Of a stretch of 64,000 nt of DNA, positions 4,609 to 64,000 are shown one piece after another. This DNA is from Gemmatimonadota bacterium (lineage in GTDB: Bacteria; ARS69). Location of the stretch: positions 1 through 64,000 of the forward strand of contig JASLLL010000005.1 in NCBI GenBank assembly GCA_030747075.1. The letters run 5' to 3'. A program made the translations under genes and the position numbers. Positions within the stretch are counted from its first letter, which is position 1. Every line of letters starts with the position of its first letter. Below the pieces are notes generated by a model. The model saw only the letters and a program-made list of their open reading frames with translations. It made no database searches and had not been told where the DNA came from.

Positions 4609-5214
4609 TCAAATGGCCTTTTCGTCGCGCCTCAGCTTTCGTAGAAACTCTTCCACTCCTGCGGCAAGATCCTCCACGGACCCGTGGTTTGCAAGCACAT
4701 GATCCGCCCGGGACGCGCGCTCGGCGTCCTCCGCCTGCGCTTCCATTCTCTGAAGAGCCTCCGCCCTGCTCATTCCCCGGTCTTCCAGTCGTTGGAGACG
4801 GATCGAAGCCTCGGCCTCCACCACAAGCAGGAAGTCCACCGGGTAGGGTGGCCTCGCTTCCACAAGGAGTGCGGCGTCCACGACCGCAAGACCCGCGAAA
4901 CCGGCCGCACGCCATTCCGCAAGCGATTCTTCCACCACGCCCCGCACTACCGGGTGCACGATCTCCTCCAGCACACGCCGACTCTCCTCATCCGGAAACA
5001 CCCTTGCGGCCAGGCGGGCCCGATCGACCGAACCGTCCCCCGCCATCACCTCCGGGCCGAAGCGTGCCAGGACGCGCTCGCAGACCTCTCCGCCCGCATA
5101 GAGCTCGCGCACGATCTCGTCCGCATCCAGTACGCGCGCACCACGCGCCGCGAGAAGCGCCGCGACGGTGCTCTTCCCCGCCCCGATGCCACCGGTAACG
5201 CCCACGACGCACAT
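4609..5214 (-). CDS. coaE: Dephospho-CoA kinase
   Basis: Phosphorylates the 3'-hydroxyl of dephospho-CoA with ATP in the last step of coenzyme A synthesis. The 201-aa protein begins with the P-loop TGGIGAGKST (residues 7-16), with DADEIVREL shortly after and a central VVDAALLVEA segment equivalent to the family's vPLLfE region. I chose ATG 5214 because GGAG lies five bases upstream and the N-terminus then matches the family. ATG 5232, just after the polA stop, is an alternative adding six residues. It follows polA and precedes prfB in the same direction. Confidence 0.93.
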   Translation of the reverse strand: MCVVGVTGGIGAGKSTVAALLAARGARVLDADEIVRELYAGGEVCERVLARFGPEVMAGDGSVDRARLAARVFPDEESRRVLEEIVHPVVRGVVEESLAEWRAAGFAGLAVVDAALLVEARPPYPVDFLLVVEAEASIRLQRLEDRGMSRAEALQRMEAQAEDAERASRADHVLANHGSVEDLAAGVEEFLRKLRRDEKAI

Positions 5215-5233
5215 CCGATCTCCGGTGCCCATG

Positions 5234-7921
5234 CTAGTGTGCCTCGCTCCAGTTCTGTCCGTGCCCCGTTTCCACAAGCAGTGGAACCTCCAGCTCCATG
5301 GCACCCTCCATGGCCGGGATCGCCACCTTGCAAAGCGCGTCCACTTCGTCCCGTGGAACATTGAACACCAGTTCATCATGCACGGTCAGGAGAATGCGAG
5401 AGCGCAGTCCCGCCTCACGGATCCCCGTCGCGACGCGCACCATTGCGATCTTCATGATGTCCGCTGCCGTCCCCTGAATGGGCGTGTTCACCGCAATCCT
5501 CTCGCCGAAGGAGCGCAGACGCGGATCCGACGACGCGATCTCGGGCACAGGTCGCCGCCGCCCACTCAGCGTCTCCACGAAGAGGTCCTGGCGCGCTCGC
5601 TCGCGAGCTTCCCGGATGAACGCGTCCACTCCCGGATAGCGTTGGAAGTACGCCTTGATGAAGCCGCCCGCTTCCTTTCGGGCAATGCCCAGCTGACCCG
5701 CGAGATTGCCGGCGCCCATCCCGTAGAGCACACCAAAGTTGATGGTCTTCGCTCTCCCCCGCTGTTCGCCGGTGACCTCCTCTTCCGGCACATCGAACAC
5801 AAGCGCGGCCGTGGCGCGGTGAATGTCACGGCCCTCGCGGAACGCCTGGATCAGCGTGTCGTCTTGAGCCATGTGTGCCAGGATGCGCAGCTCAATCTGC
5901 GAATAGTCCGCGGAGAGAAGGACACTCTCCGAGTCCAGTGGAACGAACGCGCGCCGGATCGAGCGGCCTTCTTTCGTCCGAACCGGCACATTCTGCAGGT
6001 TCGGATTCGATGAAGACAGCCGTCCCGTCACCGTCACCGCCTGATTGAAGCTGGTGTGCAGACGCCCTGTCTCCGGATGCACCAGCCCGGGGAGGGAATC
6101 CACATAGGTGGACTTGAGCTTCGCCAGTTCCCGGTGCCTCAGCAGAAGCCCGGGGATGGGGTGCTGATCGCGCAGCATCTCCAGCACGCTCGCGTTGGTG
6201 GAGAAGCCGGTCTTCGTCTTCTTTCCCGTCGGCAGTCCCAGCTTCTCGAAGAGCAGCACTCCCACCTGCTTCGGACTGCCCGGATTGAAGTCCGGCCCGG
6301 CGGTCTCCCGGATCTCCGAAACCAGTGCTTCCAGCTCGCGGTGCATCTTTCCGGAGAGGTCGACGAGAAAGTCCGTATCAAGACGGATCCCCGCCTCTTC
6401 CATGTCGGCGAGTACGCCAGCCAGTGGCATCTCAATGTCGCGAAGCAGCTCCGTTTGCCCGGCCGCGTTCAGTCCCGGCTCCAGAACCGCTCGCAGCCGG
6501 AAGGTCACATCCGCATCCTCGGCGGCATAGCGCGCCACCTTCTCCACGGGCGCGTCCGCCATGGACACCGCGGACTTGCCCTTCCCGAGTACTTCTTCGA
6601 TCGGGATCTTGCGCATCGACAGGAGACGATCCGCCAGTTCGTCCAATGAGTGGGACCGCCGGGACGGATCCTCGACATACGATGCCAGCATCGTATCGAA
6701 GTCCACCCCGCGCACCTGAACTCCATGCCGTTTGAGCACCAGCGTGTCGTACTTCACATTCTGACCCCACTTGGGAATCTCCGCGTCTTCCAGGATGGGG
6801 GCCAGAATCCCCCTGGCGGTCTCCCACGGCACGCCGCCACCCTGCGCATGGCCGACGGGCACATACCAGGCCTCCCCGTCCGACGACGCGAACGAGAGCC
6901 CCACCAGGCGGGCCAGCATTGGCCGCTTCGAAGTCGTTTCCGTGTCGAAGGCAAAGCGGCCCGCTTCACGGAGAGCGCGGGCTGCCTCCTGCAGGGCCCG
7001 GGCGGTATCCACGATCCGGTAATCGCTGCGACCGGCCACCACGGGAGCGGAAAGCTCTTGCCGCAACGAATGGAACTCCATCAGCCGCAGGAACTCGTCC
7101 AGTGCTTCCGGGTTTGCCGCCCCGTGATCGTAGTCCGAATCCGCCGGCTCGATTTCTCCATGGAGACGAACCAGTTCCCGCGCAGCCAGCGCAATCTCCC
7201 GGTCGGCGATCAGGTTCTCGCGGAGTTTGCTCGCCTTCATGTCGGCCGCGTGGTCCAAGATCGCGTCCAGTGTGCCGTGCTCCGCCAGGAGGCGCACCGC
7301 AGTCTTCTTGCCCACGCCGCGCACTCCGGCGACATTGTCGGAGGAGTCACCGACCAGCGACAGGTAGTCCACAATCTGTTCCGGGCGCACACCCATTGCC
7401 TCCAGCACTCCGCCCTCGTCCAGCGTGCGCGGGCGATCCGCACCCCTGCCCATGATCACGACGCGGACGCCTTCACCCACTTCCTGCAACAGATCCTTGT
7501 CACCGGAGACAATGCGCACCTCCTTGTCGGAGGCCGCGGCTCTTCGCGCCAACGCGGCCAGCACATCGTCCGCTTCGTACCCGTCCATGGTCACTTGTTC
7601 CACGCCGGACAGGCGCAGGTACTCCCGGATTCTCGGGAACTGGTCGCGCAGATCGTCAGGCATGCGCTCCCGCGTCGCCTTGTAGTCAGCGGAGAGCCTG
7701 TGGCGAAAGGTCGGGCCGCGAGGATCGAACACCACCACCAGCTCGTCCGGAGACAGTGCCTCCTTCATGCGCCGCAGTCCGGTGATGAACCCGTAGACTG
7801 CGCTCGTCACGGTGCCATCCGCAGTGGTCAGCGGGTTCTTCGCAAAGGCGAAGTGAGAGCGGTACGCCAGCGCTGTTCCGTCCACGAGAACCAGAACGCA
7901 CCGTGCGGTCGCGCGCGTCAT
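5234..7921 (-). CDS. polA: DNA polymerase I
   Basis: Repair and Okazaki-fragment polymerase, 895 aa, with all three domains. The 5'-3' nuclease (about residues 1-290) contains GDKDLL and GDSSDNVAGVRGVGKKTA. The 3'-5' proofreading domain keeps its acidic residues: D326 and E328 in FAFDTETTS, then NVKYD and YAAEDADVT, so proofreading looks intact, unlike in Taq-type enzymes. The polymerase domain has motif A DYSQIELRILAH, motif B RGRAKTINFGVLYGMG and motif C VHDELVF. ATG 7921 shares ATGA with the ftsK stop. The reading frame continues well upstream but there it overlaps ftsK and has no family similarity. Confidence 0.98.
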   Translation of the reverse strand: MTRATARCVLVLVDGTALAYRSHFAFAKNPLTTADGTVTSAVYGFITGLRRMKEALSPDELVVVFDPRGPTFRHRLSADYKATRERMPDDLRDQFPRIREYLRLSGVEQVTMDGYEADDVLAALARRAAASDKEVRIVSGDKDLLQEVGEGVRVVIMGRGADRPRTLDEGGVLEAMGVRPEQIVDYLSLVGDSSDNVAGVRGVGKKTAVRLLAEHGTLDAILDHAADMKASKLRENLIADREIALAARELVRLHGEIEPADSDYDHGAANPEALDEFLRLMEFHSLRQELSAPVVAGRSDYRIVDTARALQEAARALREAGRFAFDTETTSKRPMLARLVGLSFASSDGEAWYVPVGHAQGGGVPWETARGILAPILEDAEIPKWGQNVKYDTLVLKRHGVQVRGVDFDTMLASYVEDPSRRSHSLDELADRLLSMRKIPIEEVLGKGKSAVSMADAPVEKVARYAAEDADVTFRLRAVLEPGLNAAGQTELLRDIEMPLAGVLADMEEAGIRLDTDFLVDLSGKMHRELEALVSEIRETAGPDFNPGSPKQVGVLLFEKLGLPTGKKTKTGFSTNASVLEMLRDQHPIPGLLLRHRELAKLKSTYVDSLPGLVHPETGRLHTSFNQAVTVTGRLSSSNPNLQNVPVRTKEGRSIRRAFVPLDSESVLLSADYSQIELRILAHMAQDDTLIQAFREGRDIHRATAALVFDVPEEEVTGEQRGRAKTINFGVLYGMGAGNLAGQLGIARKEAGGFIKAYFQRYPGVDAFIREARERARQDLFVETLSGRRRPVPEIASSDPRLRSFGERIAVNTPIQGTAADIMKIAMVRVATGIREAGLRSRILLTVHDELVFNVPRDEVDALCKVAIPAMEGAMELEVPLLVETGHGQNWSEAH

Positions 7922-10356
7922 GATCCGGCAACGCCGCCCGGGGAGCCCTGCGACCTGGCGCTCAGGAGTTTGTCCAGATCCTCCACCGTCGGAACCAGAA
8001 TCTCGCGCGCTTTGCTTCCCGTGAAAGGCCCCACGATGCCAGCCTCTTCCATCATGTCCACAAGACGGGCAGCGCGTGCATAGCCCACCTTCAGCCGCCT
8101 CTGAAGAAGCGAAATCGACCCCTGCTGATGAGCCACCAGAATCCGCGCCGCTTCTTCGAAGAGATCGTCTTCCCTTTCCATGGGGAAGAGGTCGTCCCCC
8201 CCGGCGATGGGACTCTCCTCGACAGCGTCTTCCTCTACGCTGGGGGAATGCGTCTTCAACCACTCCACGACATCGACCGCCTCTTCGGTAGAGACAAATG
8301 ACCCGTGCACCCGGACAGCATCCGGCATTCCCACTCCGAGGTAGAGCATGTCGCCCTTACCCAGAAGCCGCTCCGCACCCACTCCGTCCAGGATGGTGCG
8401 TGAATCGGTACCCGTGGGAACCTGGAACGCAACTCGCGAGGGGAAGTTGGCCTTGATCACGCCGGTGATGACATCCACCGAGGGCCGCTGCGTGGCGAGC
8501 ACGAGATGGATGCCTACGGCCCGGCCCATTTGCGCAAGGCGCGCGATCGAAGTCTCGATGTCCCCCTTCACATTCGACAACATGAGGTCCGCAAGTTCAT
8601 CCACCACAATCACCAGGAAGGGGAGCGTGGGCGCACCCTCCTGCTCCTGCCGGGAGTTGTAGTCGCCAATCCCTCGCACGCCTACATGCGCAAGCATCCG
8701 ATAGCGAGCCTGCATCTCTCCGACAGCCCACTTGAGGATCTTGACGGCTTCCTTCGCCTGAGTCACGACAGGCGGGATCAGGTGCGGGAGGCCGACATAG
8801 GTCTGCAGTTCCAGCATCTTCGGGTCCACCATCACAAACCGCACCCGCTCCGGACCCGCCTGATAGATGATGGACATAATGATGGTGTTGATGCAGACGG
8901 ACTTCCCGGACCCGGTCGCTCCCGCAACCAGCACATGCGGCATGGCATCCAGCGGCACGCAATACGGATCCCCGGAAATGGTGCGGCCCAACGCAATGGT
9001 CAGCTTCGAACGGCTCTCCGTGAACTCCTTCGACTCCAGCAGCGGCCGAAGCCGCACTGTGACGGGTACGTCGTTGGGGATCTCGATCCCCACGGCACCC
9101 TTCCCGGGAATGGGAGCCTGAATGCGGATCTGTGAAGCCCGCATCGCCAGCGCGAGATCATCCGAAAGCCCCGCGATGGCGGACACTTTCTGCCCCGGAG
9201 CAGGTTCCACCTCGTAACGCGTGATGACGGGGCCGGGGAATACCTGCGTCACCTTTCCCTTGATGCCGAAGTCGCGAAGCGTGGTCTCCAGCACACCGGC
9301 CCGTTCACGGAAGACCCCGGCGTCCGGACCGACCTCCGCGTTTTCTTCATCCTCCGCAAGAAAGTGAAGAGGCGGTGGGGCGTATGGCGCCATGCCTTCC
9401 GGAGTGATGACCGACCCTGCCAGAGACTGCAGTTCTGAATCCGCGGAACGATCCGACTCCGCTGCCGGCGCAGGCCTGGGCGGGGTGGGCTCTCCCCGTG
9501 AAGGAAGCACTTCCACCGGTGCGCCTTCGCGCTGTTCATCCGTCGTGGGCAAGTCCGGCCCCGAGCCGGGGTCCTTTGCCGGGGCGGGGCGCACCACGGG
9601 GATTTCCCGCTCACCCGGTCCCGGTTCCTCTTCCGACCCGGCGACCGCTCCACCGCAGACTCCCGACTCCTCCGGTGGGGTGGTGATGGTTCCGCGCCTG
9701 GCCTTCAGCCTTTTCGAACTATCCTGCGCGAACAGAGACCGTACGCTCAAGGCTGCACTCTTCCACAAACCCGCACTCTTCGAAGGCACCCGGGCGGTCC
9801 ATGTCGCGAAGACACTCCCCAGACGCTGCAAGTATTCCATCCCGGGAATGCGGCGTACTCCCGACACCACAACAAGCACCACCGACGCGCCCACCAGAAG
9901 AATGGTGGCACCCACCCTTCCGAAGAACTCCTCCAGCACCCAGGCAGTGCGGGTGCCCACCCAGCCCGCGAGAAACCCGCGAACCCCCTCGGTGCTCTCC
10001 CCGGGAAGCGCGATGAATGTGGCTGCAAGCACGACCGCACCCGCCACTTTTGCCGCGAACTTCCCGTCCACGCCGGGGAGCGATCTTCCCGCAAGGAGGC
10101 GAACGCCCACGGCCCCGGCGCCCAGCGGAAGCAACCACGCTCCCAGCGCGCCCAGCAAGGCGATGGCACGCGAGGCCGCAAAGTGGTTGATCCGACCCAT
10201 CTCGCGCGCGAGTTCTCCCGAATCGACGCGCCAGTTCCCATTCTGGATGTACGCGACGAGGGCCACGGCCAGCATCAGCGCGACGACCAGCAGGCACAGC
10301 CCCGCGAGAAGACGCGGTCTTCCGGAGCGCTTTCTTCTTCGGGACTTTCCACCCAT
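7918..10356 (-). CDS. ftsK: DNA translocase FtsK/SpoIIIE
   Basis: Septal DNA pump that clears the chromosome from the division plane and activates dimer resolution. The 812-aa protein has N-terminal membrane helices (from about residue 15 to 170), an acidic/proline-rich linker, then the RecA-like motor with Walker A AGATGSGKSVC and Walker B VIVVDELADLML. A C-terminal winged-helix gamma domain (ISLLQRRLKVGYARAARLV) would read KOPS-like sites and contact XerD, which is encoded at 54727-55635. ATG 10356 is chosen over upstream in-frame TTG 10437 because the basic stretch before the first helix is typical. Its SD is weak. Confidence 0.95.
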   Translation of the reverse strand: MGGKSRRRKRSGRPRLLAGLCLLVVALMLAVALVAYIQNGNWRVDSGELAREMGRINHFAASRAIALLGALGAWLLPLGAGAVGVRLLAGRSLPGVDGKFAAKVAGAVVLAATFIALPGESTEGVRGFLAGWVGTRTAWVLEEFFGRVGATILLVGASVVLVVVSGVRRIPGMEYLQRLGSVFATWTARVPSKSAGLWKSAALSVRSLFAQDSSKRLKARRGTITTPPEESGVCGGAVAGSEEEPGPGEREIPVVRPAPAKDPGSGPDLPTTDEQREGAPVEVLPSRGEPTPPRPAPAAESDRSADSELQSLAGSVITPEGMAPYAPPPLHFLAEDEENAEVGPDAGVFRERAGVLETTLRDFGIKGKVTQVFPGPVITRYEVEPAPGQKVSAIAGLSDDLALAMRASQIRIQAPIPGKGAVGIEIPNDVPVTVRLRPLLESKEFTESRSKLTIALGRTISGDPYCVPLDAMPHVLVAGATGSGKSVCINTIIMSIIYQAGPERVRFVMVDPKMLELQTYVGLPHLIPPVVTQAKEAVKILKWAVGEMQARYRMLAHVGVRGIGDYNSRQEQEGAPTLPFLVIVVDELADLMLSNVKGDIETSIARLAQMGRAVGIHLVLATQRPSVDVITGVIKANFPSRVAFQVPTGTDSRTILDGVGAERLLGKGDMLYLGVGMPDAVRVHGSFVSTEEAVDVVEWLKTHSPSVEEDAVEESPIAGGDDLFPMEREDDLFEEAARILVAHQQGSISLLQRRLKVGYARAARLVDMMEEAGIVGPFTGSKAREILVPTVEDLDKLLSARSQGSPGGVAGS

Positions 10357-61202: not shown

Positions 61203-61973
61203 TTACCTGTTCGAGTCCCCGCGAAGGGAATCGCGAACGCGGTCCGCAATCGTGGCCGCGAGCTGCCGATCCGCGTCGGACAACCCGCCACTCCGGGGAG
61301 TCGACACCCCGCAGGAAGCCAGCCCCTCGCGTATCCCGTGTCGCCCTCTCTCATCAAGAAGGCGCTCCACCTGCTCCCTGCCCAGCGGATGCGCCCCACC
61401 CAACAGCCGCGCCACCAGGAGAACCCGCGCCGCGTGTTCGACCGTCTCCATCCGGCGGTACGCGCTGGAAACGCAACTCCCCACGGTCACCACACCGTGA
61501 TTCGCCAGAAGAACCGCGTCGTGATCGGCGATCCACGGATCCAGCGACCGGGACAGATCCTCGGTCCCCGGCGTGCCGTATGCGGCGACCGGCACCCCCC
61601 CGAGCCCCAGGATGACCTCCGGCAGGACACATTCCGACAGGTCCGCCCCGGCCGCTGCAAAGCCGGTCGCCACCGGCGGGTGGGCATGAACCACCGCCTT
61701 CACATCCGGCCGGAGATCATAGATGCGAAGATGCATCCCTGTCTCGGAAGAAGGAGTGCCGCGCCCTTCCCGCACCTTCCCGGCGCGACCCAGAAGGAGC
61801 AGGTCCTCCGCGACCATCTCCCCCTTGGCGCGGCCGGACGGCGTGATCAGGAGGGTGTCCTCCTGGCCGAGCAGCGCAGAGACATTGCCATCGGTGCCCG
61901 CGACATACTGCCGGGTGTCCAGCCGCGCACAGACGCGAACGATCTCCCGGCGAACTTCTTCAGGAGTGGTCAC
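61203..61973 (-). CDS. Class II aldolase, L-fuculose/rhamnulose-phosphate type, BMC-associated
   Basis: Likely zinc aldolase splitting a deoxysugar phosphate into DHAP and lactaldehyde. Catalytic and metal residues by alignment with FucA: E77 (SSETGMH), H96 and H98 (VVHAHPP), H159 (ANHGVV). At 256 aa it is about 40 residues longer than FucA. The extra C-terminus is a Gly/Ser/Pro linker then an amphipathic-looking helix (ADRQLAATIADRVRDSL), a candidate encapsulation peptide. GTG 61973 shares GTGA with a shell gene. Substrate is inferred from similarity and the BMC context. Confidence 0.85.
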   Translation of the reverse strand: MTTPEEVRREIVRVCARLDTRQYVAGTDGNVSALLGQEDTLLITPSGRAKGEMVAEDLLLLGRAGKVREGRGTPSSETGMHLRIYDLRPDVKAVVHAHPPVATGFAAAGADLSECVLPEVILGLGGVPVAAYGTPGTEDLSRSLDPWIADHDAVLLANHGVVTVGSCVSSAYRRMETVEHAARVLLVARLLGGAHPLGREQVERLLDERGRHGIREGLASCGVSTPRSGGLSDADRQLAATIADRVRDSLRGDSNR

Positions 61974-62251
61974 TTCTCAGGAACCCTCCACGGGTGGTGG
62001 TCGACTACACCGACAATCACGGTGCGAATGGGCGGCTGGTCGAGGCCGAGCACCTGTCCGGCCGAGTTCCCTTCATCCAGGACGAGGACTTCGTCCCCGA
62101 CGCCGGCGTCCACGGTATCCACCGCCAGATACGCTGCCCCCCGAAGCACGCCGGTCGCGTCCATCGGGCGCACCAGCAGGAGCTTTCGCCCGGCGAGTGT
62201 TTCCTCCTTCGCGGTGGCCCAAACGCTCCCGATGACCTGCCCGAGTTTCAC
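61970..62251 (-). CDS. BMC pentameric vertex protein (EutN/CcmL family), copy 1
   Basis: Small shell protein of 93 aa that should form pentamers capping the microcompartment vertices. The family start KLGQVIGSVWATAKEETLAG and the GVGDEVLVLDEGNSAGQVL segment are typical of EutN/CcmL. GTG 62251 shares GTGA with the second EutN gene; its own stop overlaps the aldolase start. Confidence 0.92.
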   Translation of the reverse strand: MKLGQVIGSVWATAKEETLAGRKLLLVRPMDATGVLRGAAYLAVDTVDAGVGDEVLVLDEGNSAGQVLGLDQPPIRTVIVGVVDHHPWRVPEK

Positions 62252-62541
62252 GCGTCCTCCTCCGGGCACAGCTCTTCCTCAACGGAGAGATCGTCGACGA
62301 TCCCGAGAATCGCCGCATCCACCGGCGCACACTTCCCGGGGAATGCCTTCGCGGCCTCGCGGGACAACACAAAGAACACGCGGTCCCCGGCGCGAGCGGA
62401 CACCTGATCCGCCGCGATCAACGGGGCGCCGCTTGTCTTCCCGCGCTCGTCCTCCGGCTGGATTACGAGGAATCGGAAGCCCTCCAGGCGAGGGTTCTTC
62501 CGCGTCGCCCAGACGGTGCCGATGACGCGCGCCAGATTCAT
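62248..62541 (-). CDS. BMC pentameric vertex protein (EutN/CcmL family), copy 2
   Basis: A second vertex protein, 97 aa, starting MNLARVIGTVWATRKNPRLEG with RFLVIQPED and SARAGDRVFFVLSREAAKAF. It is clearly diverged from copy 1, so the two are not a recent duplication. In place of the usual D/G-EGNSAR-like stretch it has FFVLSREAAK. ATG 62541 shares ATGA with the tandem shell gene. Several BMC types carry two or three different pentamers. Confidence 0.92.
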   Translation of the reverse strand: MNLARVIGTVWATRKNPRLEGFRFLVIQPEDERGKTSGAPLIAADQVSARAGDRVFFVLSREAAKAFPGKCAPVDAAILGIVDDLSVEEELCPEEDA

Positions 62542-63137
62542 CCGGCACCCCCCTCGTCCGTGCTTTCGGTGAGCATCCTCCCCACCCGCGCCGCCAGTTC
62601 CGGATGCGGACCCGCGAGAACCTCGGTTCGAACATGAAAGCCGCGTTCATCAATGGGCGCACGCGCCGCTTCCACGGCCGCCTGCACCGCGGCGACATCT
62701 CCGGTCAGCGTGAAGAAGCCCTTGCCGCCGATCCCGCGACCGGCCCCCAGTTCCAGAACGCTCACCGTCGCGGCCTTGGCGGCCGCGTCCGCTCCGACAA
62801 TCGCCGATGCCACCGTCAAGGTCTCCACGATCCCGATCGCCTCGCCCACCTTCAGCGCGGACGGCCCCCGGCCAATGGCGGGCGGCACCTCCGGGTGCAC
62901 ACGCGCAAGGAGAAGTTCGTCCAGGATGCAGCCGGGTGCCACCGATCGACCGCTGTCCAGCGAGGCCTCCACCTCCGCCACCCCCCCACCGAAGATCACG
63001 AGAAACTTGCCGGGGGAAACGGGCGACGCTCGAAGCAGAGCCACGCGAGCGGTCTTGAGTACTTCGTCCGCCGCACGCACTCCGGCCGCAATGGACGAAT
63101 ACTCCAGAAGCCCCAGCGCATCCTCGACCGTCTTCAC
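62538..63137 (-). CDS. Tandem-domain BMC shell protein, PduT-like
   Basis: A 199-aa shell protein with two fused BMC domains (residues about 5-90 and 98-185), forming a pseudohexameric trimer. It follows Salmonella PduT closely in order: LGLLEYSSIAAGVRAADEVL, PGKFLVIFGGGVAEVEASL, ARVHPEVPPAI, GIVETLTVASAIVGAD and GIGGKGFFTLTGDVAAV. PduT holds an Fe-S cluster at its pore through Cys38; the aligned residue here is S41 (SPVSPGK), so that cluster is probably lost. GTG start, GTGA-coupled to the PduS-like gene. Confidence 0.9.
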   Translation of the reverse strand: MKTVEDALGLLEYSSIAAGVRAADEVLKTARVALLRASPVSPGKFLVIFGGGVAEVEASLDSGRSVAPGCILDELLLARVHPEVPPAIGRGPSALKVGEAIGIVETLTVASAIVGADAAAKAATVSVLELGAGRGIGGKGFFTLTGDVAAVQAAVEAARAPIDERGFHVRTEVLAGPHPELAARVGRMLTESTDEGGAG

Positions 63138-64000
63138 GCTCTCTCCCTTACCAGCGTCAGCGAACCATTCAACGCGCGAACTCTCCCCGAGAAGGGCGCG
63201 TGAATGCGCACTTCCTGCTCCCCGTCCCCGCCTCGGGCGACCACCTGCCCCTTCCAGACATCCTCCCCAGTCCGGACGACCGCCGAGACGCGGAGTCCGT
63301 CCTCTTGGGCCAGCGACAGGCGAACGCGCCCGATCCGGTCGCGGACATCGGTCCGGGCCTCCACCGCTCCTCCGATCCCGAGCCTGCGTGCGAACGCCTC
63401 GCGCGGGACGAAGCGAACCGCTGACGGCGACCGCTGCCGCACCCCTTGCGAACGAACACGCTGCGCGACTTCCGATGCGAGTCTACCCACCGGAATCGCC
63501 GACGGACAGACGGTATCGCACAATCGGCATTCCAGACACGATCCGGACGCGCTCGGAGGATACGGTCCTCCATCCCGCCCCGGCCAGCGAAGAGCGTCCA
63601 CCAGGCTTCGCGGCCGCACCCCCGCATCGGCAGCCGGGCAGATGGTGTTGCACAGGAAGCAGCGGGAGCAGCCCGCTTCCACGCGAGAGAGCGCGCTGTT
63701 GAAGGAGCGCGCCTCCCCTTCGGCCAGTGGGTGATCGGGCGGAAGGAAGATCATCGCACCCTCCCCGGCGGAAATGCCGTGTCGCGTTCCGACCGCTCGC
63801 CCACGACTCCCGCTCCAGGCGAACGCCACCGCATCGGGTGACTTGCGCCCTCCCGCCATCCGCGCAAGCGTGGCAACCGTCGTGCCAAGGGGAACGCGAA
63901 AAGTGCCCGGACTGCGCACATCTCCGGCAACCGTCACCCATGCGTCGAGCAGAACACGACCGCGCCTCGCGTGCCCGGCCGCCACCGCAACCCATGCGGG
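63134..64000 (-). CDS. PduS/RnfC-like Fe-S electron-transfer protein (5' end beyond window)
   Basis: C-terminal 288 residues of a PduS-type cobalamin-reductase/RnfC-like protein; the frame is open to the window edge. Visible parts, in order: an SLBB-like segment (VTVAGDVRSPGTFRVPLG), two complete 4Fe-4S motifs (CSRCFLCNTICP and CLECRLCDTVCP, eight Cys in all), and a C-terminal barrel-sandwich domain (VRTGEDVWKGQVVA). In BMCs such proteins recycle cofactors or pass electrons across the shell, usually beside PduT. The flavin/NADH part, if present, would be upstream. Confidence 0.85.
   Translation of the reverse strand, partial: PAWVAVAAGHARRGRVLLDAWVTVAGDVRSPGTFRVPLGTTVATLARMAGGRKSPDAVAFAWSGSRGRAVGTRHGISAGEGAMIFLPPDHPLAEGEARSFNSALSRVEAGCSRCFLCNTICPAADAGVRPRSLVDALRWPGRDGGPYPPSASGSCLECRLCDTVCPSAIPVGRLASEVAQRVRSQGVRQRSPSAVRFVPREAFARRLGIGGAVEARTDVRDRIGRVRLSLAQEDGLRVSAVVRTGEDVWKGQVVARGGDGEQEVRIHAPFSGRVRALNGSLTLVRERA

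What the first reader, a model, noticed from the sequence alone, without database searches (positions are those of the whole stretch)
61203..64000. Edge of a bacterial microcompartment operon with an aldolase cargo
Five GTGA/ATGA-coupled genes encode a PduS-like protein, a PduT-like tandem shell protein, two different vertex pentamers and a class II aldolase. The aldolase points to fucose/rhamnose-type deoxysugar breakdown (PVM or GRM5-like BMCs), while the PduS/PduT pair is typical of Pdu/GRM types. The combination in what looks like an FCB-type genome may be an under-described BMC class. The signature enzymes and hexamers should lie upstream of position 64000.
Basis: partly seen in the sequence, partly recalled or inferred. 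Interest (0 to 1): 0.75.

Follow-up and report, generated by a model that had tools for sequence, protein, structure and literature searches.

The report
Aldolase-type bacterial microcompartment operon, compact variant
The sequence carries a complete, compact operon for a protein-shelled bacterial organelle that very probably cleaves a sugar phosphate and oxidises the toxic aldehyde released; the genome points to waste from S-adenosylmethionine chemistry, rather than fucose or rhamnose, as the likely source.

Summary
The window ends inside a nine-gene minus-strand operon that I completed on the same contig (C5 66896-61203): BMC-H, BMC-H, BMC-P, CoA-acylating aldehyde dehydrogenase (AldDH), PduS-like protein, PduT-like BMC-T, BMC-P, BMC-P, class II aldolase. 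All four BMC domains and three BMC-P genes detected in the genome lie in it. Two other genomes of this very small phylum (five held) carry the locus almost whole, and a third has its BMC-P/aldolase end.

The fucose/rhamnose reading is not supported: no L-fucose isomerase in any of the five genomes, and no FGGY sugar kinase in one BMC-bearing genome. No PduL or Pta phosphotransacylase was found in the window's genome. The PduS-like protein has lost its flavin/NADH-site signature, and the BMC-T has Ser at PduT's cluster-binding Cys38.

The aldolase is the genome's only PF00596 protein, alongside MtnP and MtnA, so I propose an encapsulated DHAP shunt: 5-methylthio- or 5-deoxyribulose-1-phosphate to DHAP plus a C2 aldehyde, then acyl-CoA. 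AldDH is closer to EutE (55%) than PduP (46%). The substrate remains inferred.

Closest known type is HO (Haliangium ochraceum). This is a compact variant of aldolase-type metabolosomes with an incomplete core.

The parts
61203..61973 (-). Class II (PF00596) aldolase, 256 aa; E77, H96, H98, H159 metal/catalytic residues intact; C-terminal tail in the position of an encapsulation-peptide-like helix
   Evidence: Pfam E 4.7e-46; residues; tail alignment; tail resembles the AldDH N-terminus in orthologues (26, 5 and 16 of 1000 shuffles) but not significantly in the window copy itself (741/1000)
61970..62251 (-). BMC-P (pentamer) c; start taken at the GTGA overlap, longest ORF begins 62269
   Evidence: PF03319 E 2.3e-23; junction
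62248..62541 (-). BMC-P (pentamer) b
   Evidence: PF03319 E 7e-27
62538..63137 (-). BMC-T (tandem PF00936, PduT-like) with Ser at the PduT Cys38 position (VSPGKF)
   Evidence: PF00936 twice, E 9e-37; TIGR02526 101 bits, below its 250-bit cut-off; best solved relatives are PduT family; Ser in all three orthologues
63134..64000 (-). PduS/RnfC-like protein, in-window part; the whole gene is C5 64408-63134 (424 aa). Two CxxCxxCxxxCP cluster motifs kept, GAGGAGFPTH flavin/NADH motif lost. The rest of the operon lies outside the window on the same contig (same numbering, minus strand): AldDH 65868-64405, BMC-P a 66194-65886, BMC-H2 66515-66222, BMC-H1 66896-66582
   Evidence: alignment; Complex1_51K 21 bits, below cut-off, against 153 and 144 bits in canonical PduS; upstream genes: AldDH NF011927 620 bits, cut-off 403, BMC-P E 4e-27, BMC-H E 1e-30 and 5e-30

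Best explanation
A complete single-operon metabolosome of the class II aldolase type with an incomplete core. SHOWN: gene content, order, coupling and conservation; intact aldolase and AldDH active-site residues; absence of PduL and Pta from the genome; loss of the PduS flavin signature and of the PduT cluster cysteine. INFERRED: the aldolase and the acylating AldDH are packed inside the shell by terminal helices; the aldolase cleaves a ketose-1-phosphate to DHAP plus a C2 aldehyde; AldDH at once converts the aldehyde to acyl-CoA with NADH, which pulls an unfavourable cleavage forward and keeps the aldehyde from the cytosol. Most likely substrate: the product of cytosolic MtnP and MtnA, i.e. 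5-methylthioribulose-1-phosphate or 5-deoxyribulose-1-phosphate from methylthioadenosine or 5'-deoxyadenosine. That would be an encapsulated DHAP shunt yielding acetyl-CoA or methylthioacetyl-CoA. With no phosphotransacylase, acyl-CoA must leave the shell or be handled by an unknown route.
For: Locus conserved in G003 and G004, and its BMC-P/aldolase end in G002. The aldolase is the only PF00596 protein in G000, G002, G003 and G004, so no separate MtnB or Ald2 is available. True MtnA in G000 and G003 (TIGR00512 424 and 431 bits, cut-off 279), PF01008 also in G004; MtnP over cut-off in all five. No FucI in five genomes; no FGGY kinase in G004. AldDH 54.7% identical to EutE (acetaldehyde) against 46.5% to PduP; it groups with EutE/HO/SPU and not with GRM enzymes. 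Related non-BMC aldolases sit in an operon with mtnA (G006, 42% identical) and in a plasmid cluster with mtnA and deoD (Pusillibacter, 46%). A tailed relative (50%) adjoins metH in an SPU-BMC Elusimicrobia genome. The solved 5-deoxyribulose-1-phosphate aldolase DrdA (6btd) is among the best solved relatives, level with FucA. Equilibrium constant of such cleavages about 1e-4 (PMC6079011), giving a reason for coupling. The MtnP form of the DHAP shunt is described in PMC10986504.
Against: Substrate specificity cannot be read from the sequence: best NCBIfam matches are mixed (ribulose-phosphate epimerase, fuculose-, ribulose-1-phosphate and oxo-tetronate families) and all fall below cut-off. DrdA groups with FucA, apart from the window clade. 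mtnA is not near the BMC locus and is common in bacteria generally. G001 has MtnA and MtnP but no aldolase was found (82% complete), and G002 lacks a detected MtnA (67% complete). Other fates for the MtnA product (RuBisCO-like route) and L-rhamnose isomerase were not searched. In G006 the mtnA-linked and the BMC-linked aldolases are separate paralogues.
Confidence: 0.42

Rival explanations
1. PVM/PVM-like function: the aldolase cleaves L-fuculose- or L-rhamnulose-1-phosphate to DHAP and lactaldehyde, which AldDH converts to lactoyl-CoA.
For: PF00596 aldolase is the signature enzyme of PVM and GRM5 (PMC8217296, PMC4207490); FucA proteins match as well as DrdA; HMMER scores of GRM3/GRM5-type AldDH structures are high.
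Against: No L-fucose isomerase in five genomes; no FGGY kinase in BMC-bearing, 96% complete G004 and only one full-length hit in G000; no DeoR regulator, lactate/malate dehydrogenase, acetate kinase or PduL in the operon; AldDH closer to EutE than to PduP.
Confidence: 0.13
2. Ribonucleoside salvage: ribose-1-phosphate is isomerised to ribulose-1-phosphate and cleaved by the BMC aldolase to DHAP and glycolaldehyde, oxidised to glycolyl-CoA.
For: Haloarchaeal ribulose-1-phosphate aldolase family is the best NCBIfam match of the G003 orthologue (121.5 bits) and third best for the window; purine-nucleoside phosphorylase-like genes exist (weaker MTAP hits); the Pusillibacter cluster contains deoD.
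Against: The isomerase is a clear MtnA, not ribose-1,5-bisphosphate isomerase; a dedicated 5-deoxynucleoside phosphorylase (MtnP) is present; AldDH resembles the acetaldehyde enzyme EutE.
Confidence: 0.2
3. An HO-type metabolosome of still unknown substrate in which the aldolase is accessory, as suggested for Haliangium-type loci.
For: Same order H-P-AldDH-BMC-T as HO loci L025, L029 and L033, and same BMC-P/BMC-P/aldolase order as the G006 satellite L064; the HO substrate is unknown (PMC8217296).
Against: No BMC-Tdp in or near the operon, although HO loci carry one; HO-linked aldolases have Asn in place of the third metal His, whereas the window aldolase is intact; AldDH forms its own branch.
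Confidence: 0.17
4. A decaying metabolosome: PduS-like and BMC-T have lost their cofactor sites and core enzymes are missing, so the operon is residual.
For: Missing PduL/Pta, lost PduS flavin motif and PduT cysteine, PduS-like gene absent in G003.
Against: All nine frames are open and coupled; AldDH 70-72% and BMC-H2 about 93% identical between genera; aldolase and AldDH catalytic residues intact.
Confidence: 0.05

Closest known systems
HO-type BMC (Haliangium ochraceum type; Sutter et al. 2021, PMC8217296)
   Same: Order BMC-H, BMC-P, AldDH, BMC-Ts; three BMC-P genes; BMC-P/BMC-P/aldolase unit as in HO satellite or type II loci; no PduL in the locus (H. ochraceum was filed as incomplete-core in PMC4207490)
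   Different: Two BMC-H, no BMC-Tdp in the operon, a PduS-like gene, all parts in one 5.7 kb operon, intact aldolase with a C-terminal tail; AldDH on its own branch
PVM / PVM-like BMC
   Same: Class II aldolase plus CoA-acylating AldDH
   Different: No PduL, DeoR regulator, lactate/malate dehydrogenase or acetate kinase in the locus; no fucose isomerase in the phylum; contains BMC-T and PduS-like genes
ACI BMC of Acidobacteria
   Same: Class II aldolase with C-terminal encapsulation peptide and BMC-P triplet
   Different: Here AldDH is in the main operon, there is no hydroxyacid dehydrogenase in the operon, and a BMC-T is present
SPU-like BMC of Latescibacteria (PMC4207490)
   Same: Class II aldolase, AldDH, PduS
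   Different: That type has PduL, RpiB and acetate kinase, which are absent from this operon
DHAP shunt (MtnP or MtnN/MtnK, MtnA, Ald2; PMC10986504, PMC6079011)
   Same: MtnP, MtnA and a single class II aldolase in the genome
   Different: The DHAP shunts described in those papers are soluble and not linked to a shell or an acylating AldDH

Membership tests
Metabolosome (catabolic BMC) | BMC-H and BMC-P shell genes in one locus | tested here: met
Metabolosome (catabolic BMC) | PF00171 CoA-acylating AldDH with encapsulation helix | tested here: met
   NF011927 620 bits; amphipathic N-terminal helix, individually weak statistics
Metabolosome (catabolic BMC) | Phosphotransacylase (PduL or Pta) | tested here: not met
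   no PF06130 or PF01515 in G000
Metabolosome (catabolic BMC) | Alcohol dehydrogenase for NAD+ recycling in the locus | tested here: not met
   operon gene list; elsewhere in the genome not searched
HO type | Order BMC-H, BMC-P, AldDH, BMC-Ts and BMC-P triplet | tested here: met
   compared with L025, L029, L033
HO type | BMC-Tdp shell protein | tested here: not met
   none in the window, in C5 55-95 kb or in the L013/L014 loci; a genome-wide PF00936 scan is weak for Tdp (25-31 bits), so a distant copy is not excluded
HO type | AldDH in the HO clade | tested here: inconclusive
   own branch beside EutE, HO and SPU, forks open
PVM / PVM-like | Class II aldolase signature enzyme | tested here: met
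PVM / PVM-like | Fucose/rhamnose pathway in the genome | tested here: not met
   no FucI in 5 genomes, no FGGY kinase in G004; RhaA not searched
PVM / PVM-like | DeoR regulator, PduL, lactate/malate dehydrogenase in the locus | tested here: not met
GRM5 | Glycyl radical enzyme in the locus | tested here: not met
   none seen among the translated genes at C5 55-95 kb
PduS/PduT redox pair | PduS flavin/NADH domain with GAGGAGFPTH motif | tested here: not met
PduS/PduT redox pair | PduT pore cysteine (Cys38) for the [4Fe-4S] cluster | tested here: not met
   Ser in all three orthologues, aligned with the PduT structure 3n79
DHAP shunt | MtnP and MtnA present | tested here: met
DHAP shunt | Class II aldolase with intact active site and no other PF00596 protein | tested here: met
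DHAP shunt | Aldolase activity on 5-deoxy-/5-methylthioribulose-1-phosphate | not testable with these tools
   needs an enzyme assay

The most novel reading that the evidence does not exclude
A bacterial organelle dedicated to salvage of S-adenosylmethionine by-products: a shell-enclosed DHAP-shunt aldolase and acylating AldDH that works without a phosphotransacylase, a function not described for any catalogued BMC type that I found (no paper in the held library joins bacterial microcompartments with the DHAP shunt, or microcompartments with methylthioadenosine and deoxyadenosine together).
Probability: 0.35. Interest if true: 0.78.

Novelty: new variant of a known kind. Interest (0 to 1): 0.55.

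Why it matters
About a fifth of surveyed genomes carry BMC shell proteins (PMC8217296), and many types, including the structural model HO, have no known substrate. This locus gives a compact nine-gene case with one candidate aldehyde-producing enzyme and a clear genomic suggestion of substrate, so the function of incomplete-core, class II aldolase BMCs becomes directly testable. It also shows a metabolosome with no recognisable phosphotransacylase anywhere in its genome, which sharpens the open question of CoA recycling.

Tried and rejected
Fucose/rhamnose function: tested by FucI and FGGY searches and disfavoured. PduL elsewhere in the genome: not found; Pta likewise. Reading PduS/PduT as a working electron relay: rejected on motif loss. 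Obtaining a biochemically proven Ald2 sequence from the UTI89 leuX region: the stretches fetched did not contain mtnK-mtnA-ald2. Aldolase phylogeny to fix the substrate: forks unresolved. AlphaFold of the in-window part of the PduS-like protein (pLDDT 81) lacks the N-terminal domain of interest and was not pursued. Naming the host phylum: not possible; the related records are titled only 'bacterium' (M3-44_Bin_119, M3-22_Bin_282). The supplementary locus diagrams of the BMC catalogue could not be read, so an identical catalogued subtype is not excluded.
Full report
WHAT IS THERE. The window is bases 1-64000 of contig C5 (112,215 bp) of a 2.67 Mb genome rated 100% complete. The five genes reported at the window's right edge are real and coupled by GTGA/ATGA overlaps. 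Reading on along the contig gives the whole operon on the minus strand, 66896 to 61203: BMC-H1, BMC-H2, BMC-P(a), AldDH, PduS-like, BMC-T, BMC-P(b), BMC-P(c), class II aldolase. Pfam assignments are unambiguous. The genome has only four PF00936 domains and three PF03319 domains above threshold, all in this operon; PF00936 is a weak detector of BMC-Tdp proteins, so a distant Tdp gene cannot be excluded. Downstream are ProS, MurJ and UvrC (assigned by reading the translations); upstream is an unassigned protein (67548-68165, no Pfam or NCBIfam match) and then an alpha-amylase-like gene on the other strand (by eye).

CONSERVATION. Only five genomes of this phylum are held, all in one family. G004 has the same nine genes in the same order; G003 has eight, lacking the PduS-like gene. 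G002 (67% complete) has BMC-P and aldolase at a contig end next to S20/MurJ/UvrC, the same neighbourhood as in the other genomes. In G001 (82%) neither the BMC-T nor an aldolase was found. Identity to the window copies is 87-93% for BMC-H, 70-72% for AldDH, 65-72% for BMC-T, 58-60% for the aldolase and 42% for the PduS-like protein.

REDOX PARTS. In neighbouring Pdu/GRM-like loci PduS has GAGGAGFPTH and PduT has (V/I)CPGKF. In the window and G004 the PduS-like protein lacks the glycine-rich motif but keeps both CxxCxxCxxxCP motifs, and the BMC-T reads (V/I)SPGKF in all three genomes. Pfam's Nuo51 FMN-binding domain scores 21 bits in the window protein (cut-off 31), no hit in G004, against 153 and 144 bits in canonical PduS. 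The PduT structure 3n79, which reads ISPGKF at the same place, is to my knowledge the C38S mutant. The natural HO BMC-T1 was, again to my knowledge, engineered to bind a cluster at this position (JACS 2016, cited in PMC8217296). So the pair should not be read as a Pdu-type NADH-to-cluster relay.

CORE ENZYMES. The aldolase keeps E77, H96, H98 and H159 and the AldDH keeps Cys288. There is no PduL (PF06130) and no Pta (PF01515) in the genome; control genomes were detected in both searches. This is therefore an incomplete-core metabolosome in the sense of Axen et al. (PMC4207490). The AldDH N-terminus and the C-terminal tails of the orthologous aldolases look like encapsulation helices. The tail-to-AldDH similarity is significant in G004, G003 and G002 (26, 5 and 16 of 1000 shuffles; the G002 tail was compared with the G003 AldDH) but not in the window copy itself (741 of 1000). 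The tail is absent from the non-BMC aldolase of G006 and from FucA, and present in an aldolase of a Firmicute BMC (Acetoanaerobium, L092).

SUBSTRATE. Fucose/rhamnose: no L-fucose isomerase in five genomes, and G004 has no FGGY kinase, so the FucK/RhaB step is missing there. Methylthioadenosine/5'-deoxyadenosine: MtnP is over its cut-off in all five genomes; MtnA is found in four by PF01008, confirmed by TIGR00512 in G000 and G003. The BMC aldolase is the only PF00596 protein in G000, G002, G003 and G004. An MtnB or Ald2 would also be PF00596, so unless a RuBisCO-like route exists the MtnA product has nowhere else obvious to go. The AldDH is 54.7% identical to EutE and 46.5% to PduP, which favours a C2 aldehyde, as a DHAP shunt would give (acetaldehyde or methylthioacetaldehyde, PMC10986504). 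Related aldolases lie in an operon with mtnA in a myxobacterium (L063), in a cluster with mtnA and deoD in Pusillibacter (L094) and next to metH in an Elusimicrobia genome with an SPU BMC (L069). The aldol cleavage has an equilibrium constant near 1e-4 (PMC6079011), so immediate oxidation by a co-packaged AldDH is chemically sensible. None of this proves the substrate: the aldolase scores below every curated cut-off, DrdA itself groups with FucA, and mtnA is common.

PLACE AMONG KNOWN TYPES. The order H-P-AldDH-BMC-T is that of HO loci (L025, L029, L033), and the BMC-P/BMC-P/aldolase order is that of the satellite in the same myxobacterial genome G006 (L064), matching the description of HO type I satellites and type II main loci in PMC8217296. 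But HO loci have BMC-Tdp upstream and their linked aldolases have Asn for the third metal His, whereas this locus has no Tdp nearby, an intact aldolase, two BMC-H and a modified PduS. I therefore call it a new variant of class II aldolase metabolosomes with an HO-like shell plan. It works like an aldolase metabolosome; it is not filed as PVM, GRM5 or Pdu, and HO membership is open.

CONFIDENCE. That it is a complete BMC operon with aldolase and AldDH cargo: about 0.95. That the substrate is the MtnP/MtnA product (encapsulated DHAP shunt): about 0.4.

Noticed in passing
L064:6910-7584 and L068:7881-8564 (myxobacterial HO-type genomes G006, G005): BMC-P-linked class II aldolases have Asn in place of the third metal-binding His (SGNG/AGNG instead of ANHG), so the HO-type aldolase may be inactive or altered.
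   Followed up: partly
L069:7519-8262 (Elusimicrobia genome G010, which has an SPU BMC): The genome's only class II aldolase carries a C-terminal encapsulation-like tail and lies next to metH and a MetH activation-domain protein, suggesting a second cargo for the SPU organelle.
   Followed up: partly
L070:3210-4079 with BMC-H at 5192-5662 (Latescibacterota genome G008): Tailed class II aldolase, 48% identical to the window's, close to a lone BMC-H gene: possible satellite locus.
   Followed up: no
L092:8971-13503 (Acetoanaerobium noterae): Unannotated BMC locus: DeoR-like gene just upstream, tailed aldolase, AldDH, several BMC-H-like genes, PduL, BMC-P.
   Followed up: partly
L063:6369-8190 (Myxococcales YF1.bin66, G006): Overlapping aldolase and mtnA genes: an apparent DHAP-shunt operon in a genome that also has an HO-type BMC.
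   Followed up: partly
L094:5989-11901 (Pusillibacter faecalis plasmid pMM59_01): Class II aldolase, DeoR, cupin, SDR, mtnA, BMP-family ABC transporter and deoD in one cluster: looks like a 5-deoxynucleoside or nucleoside catabolic island.
   Followed up: no
L014 (G003) between AldDH 7139-8608 and BMC-T 6521-7132: The PduS-like gene is absent here although the rest of the operon is conserved.
   Followed up: yes
contig C5 67548-68165 (minus strand), just outside the window: 205-aa protein upstream of the operon with no Pfam or NCBIfam match and an HTH-like C-terminus; possible regulator.
   Followed up: no
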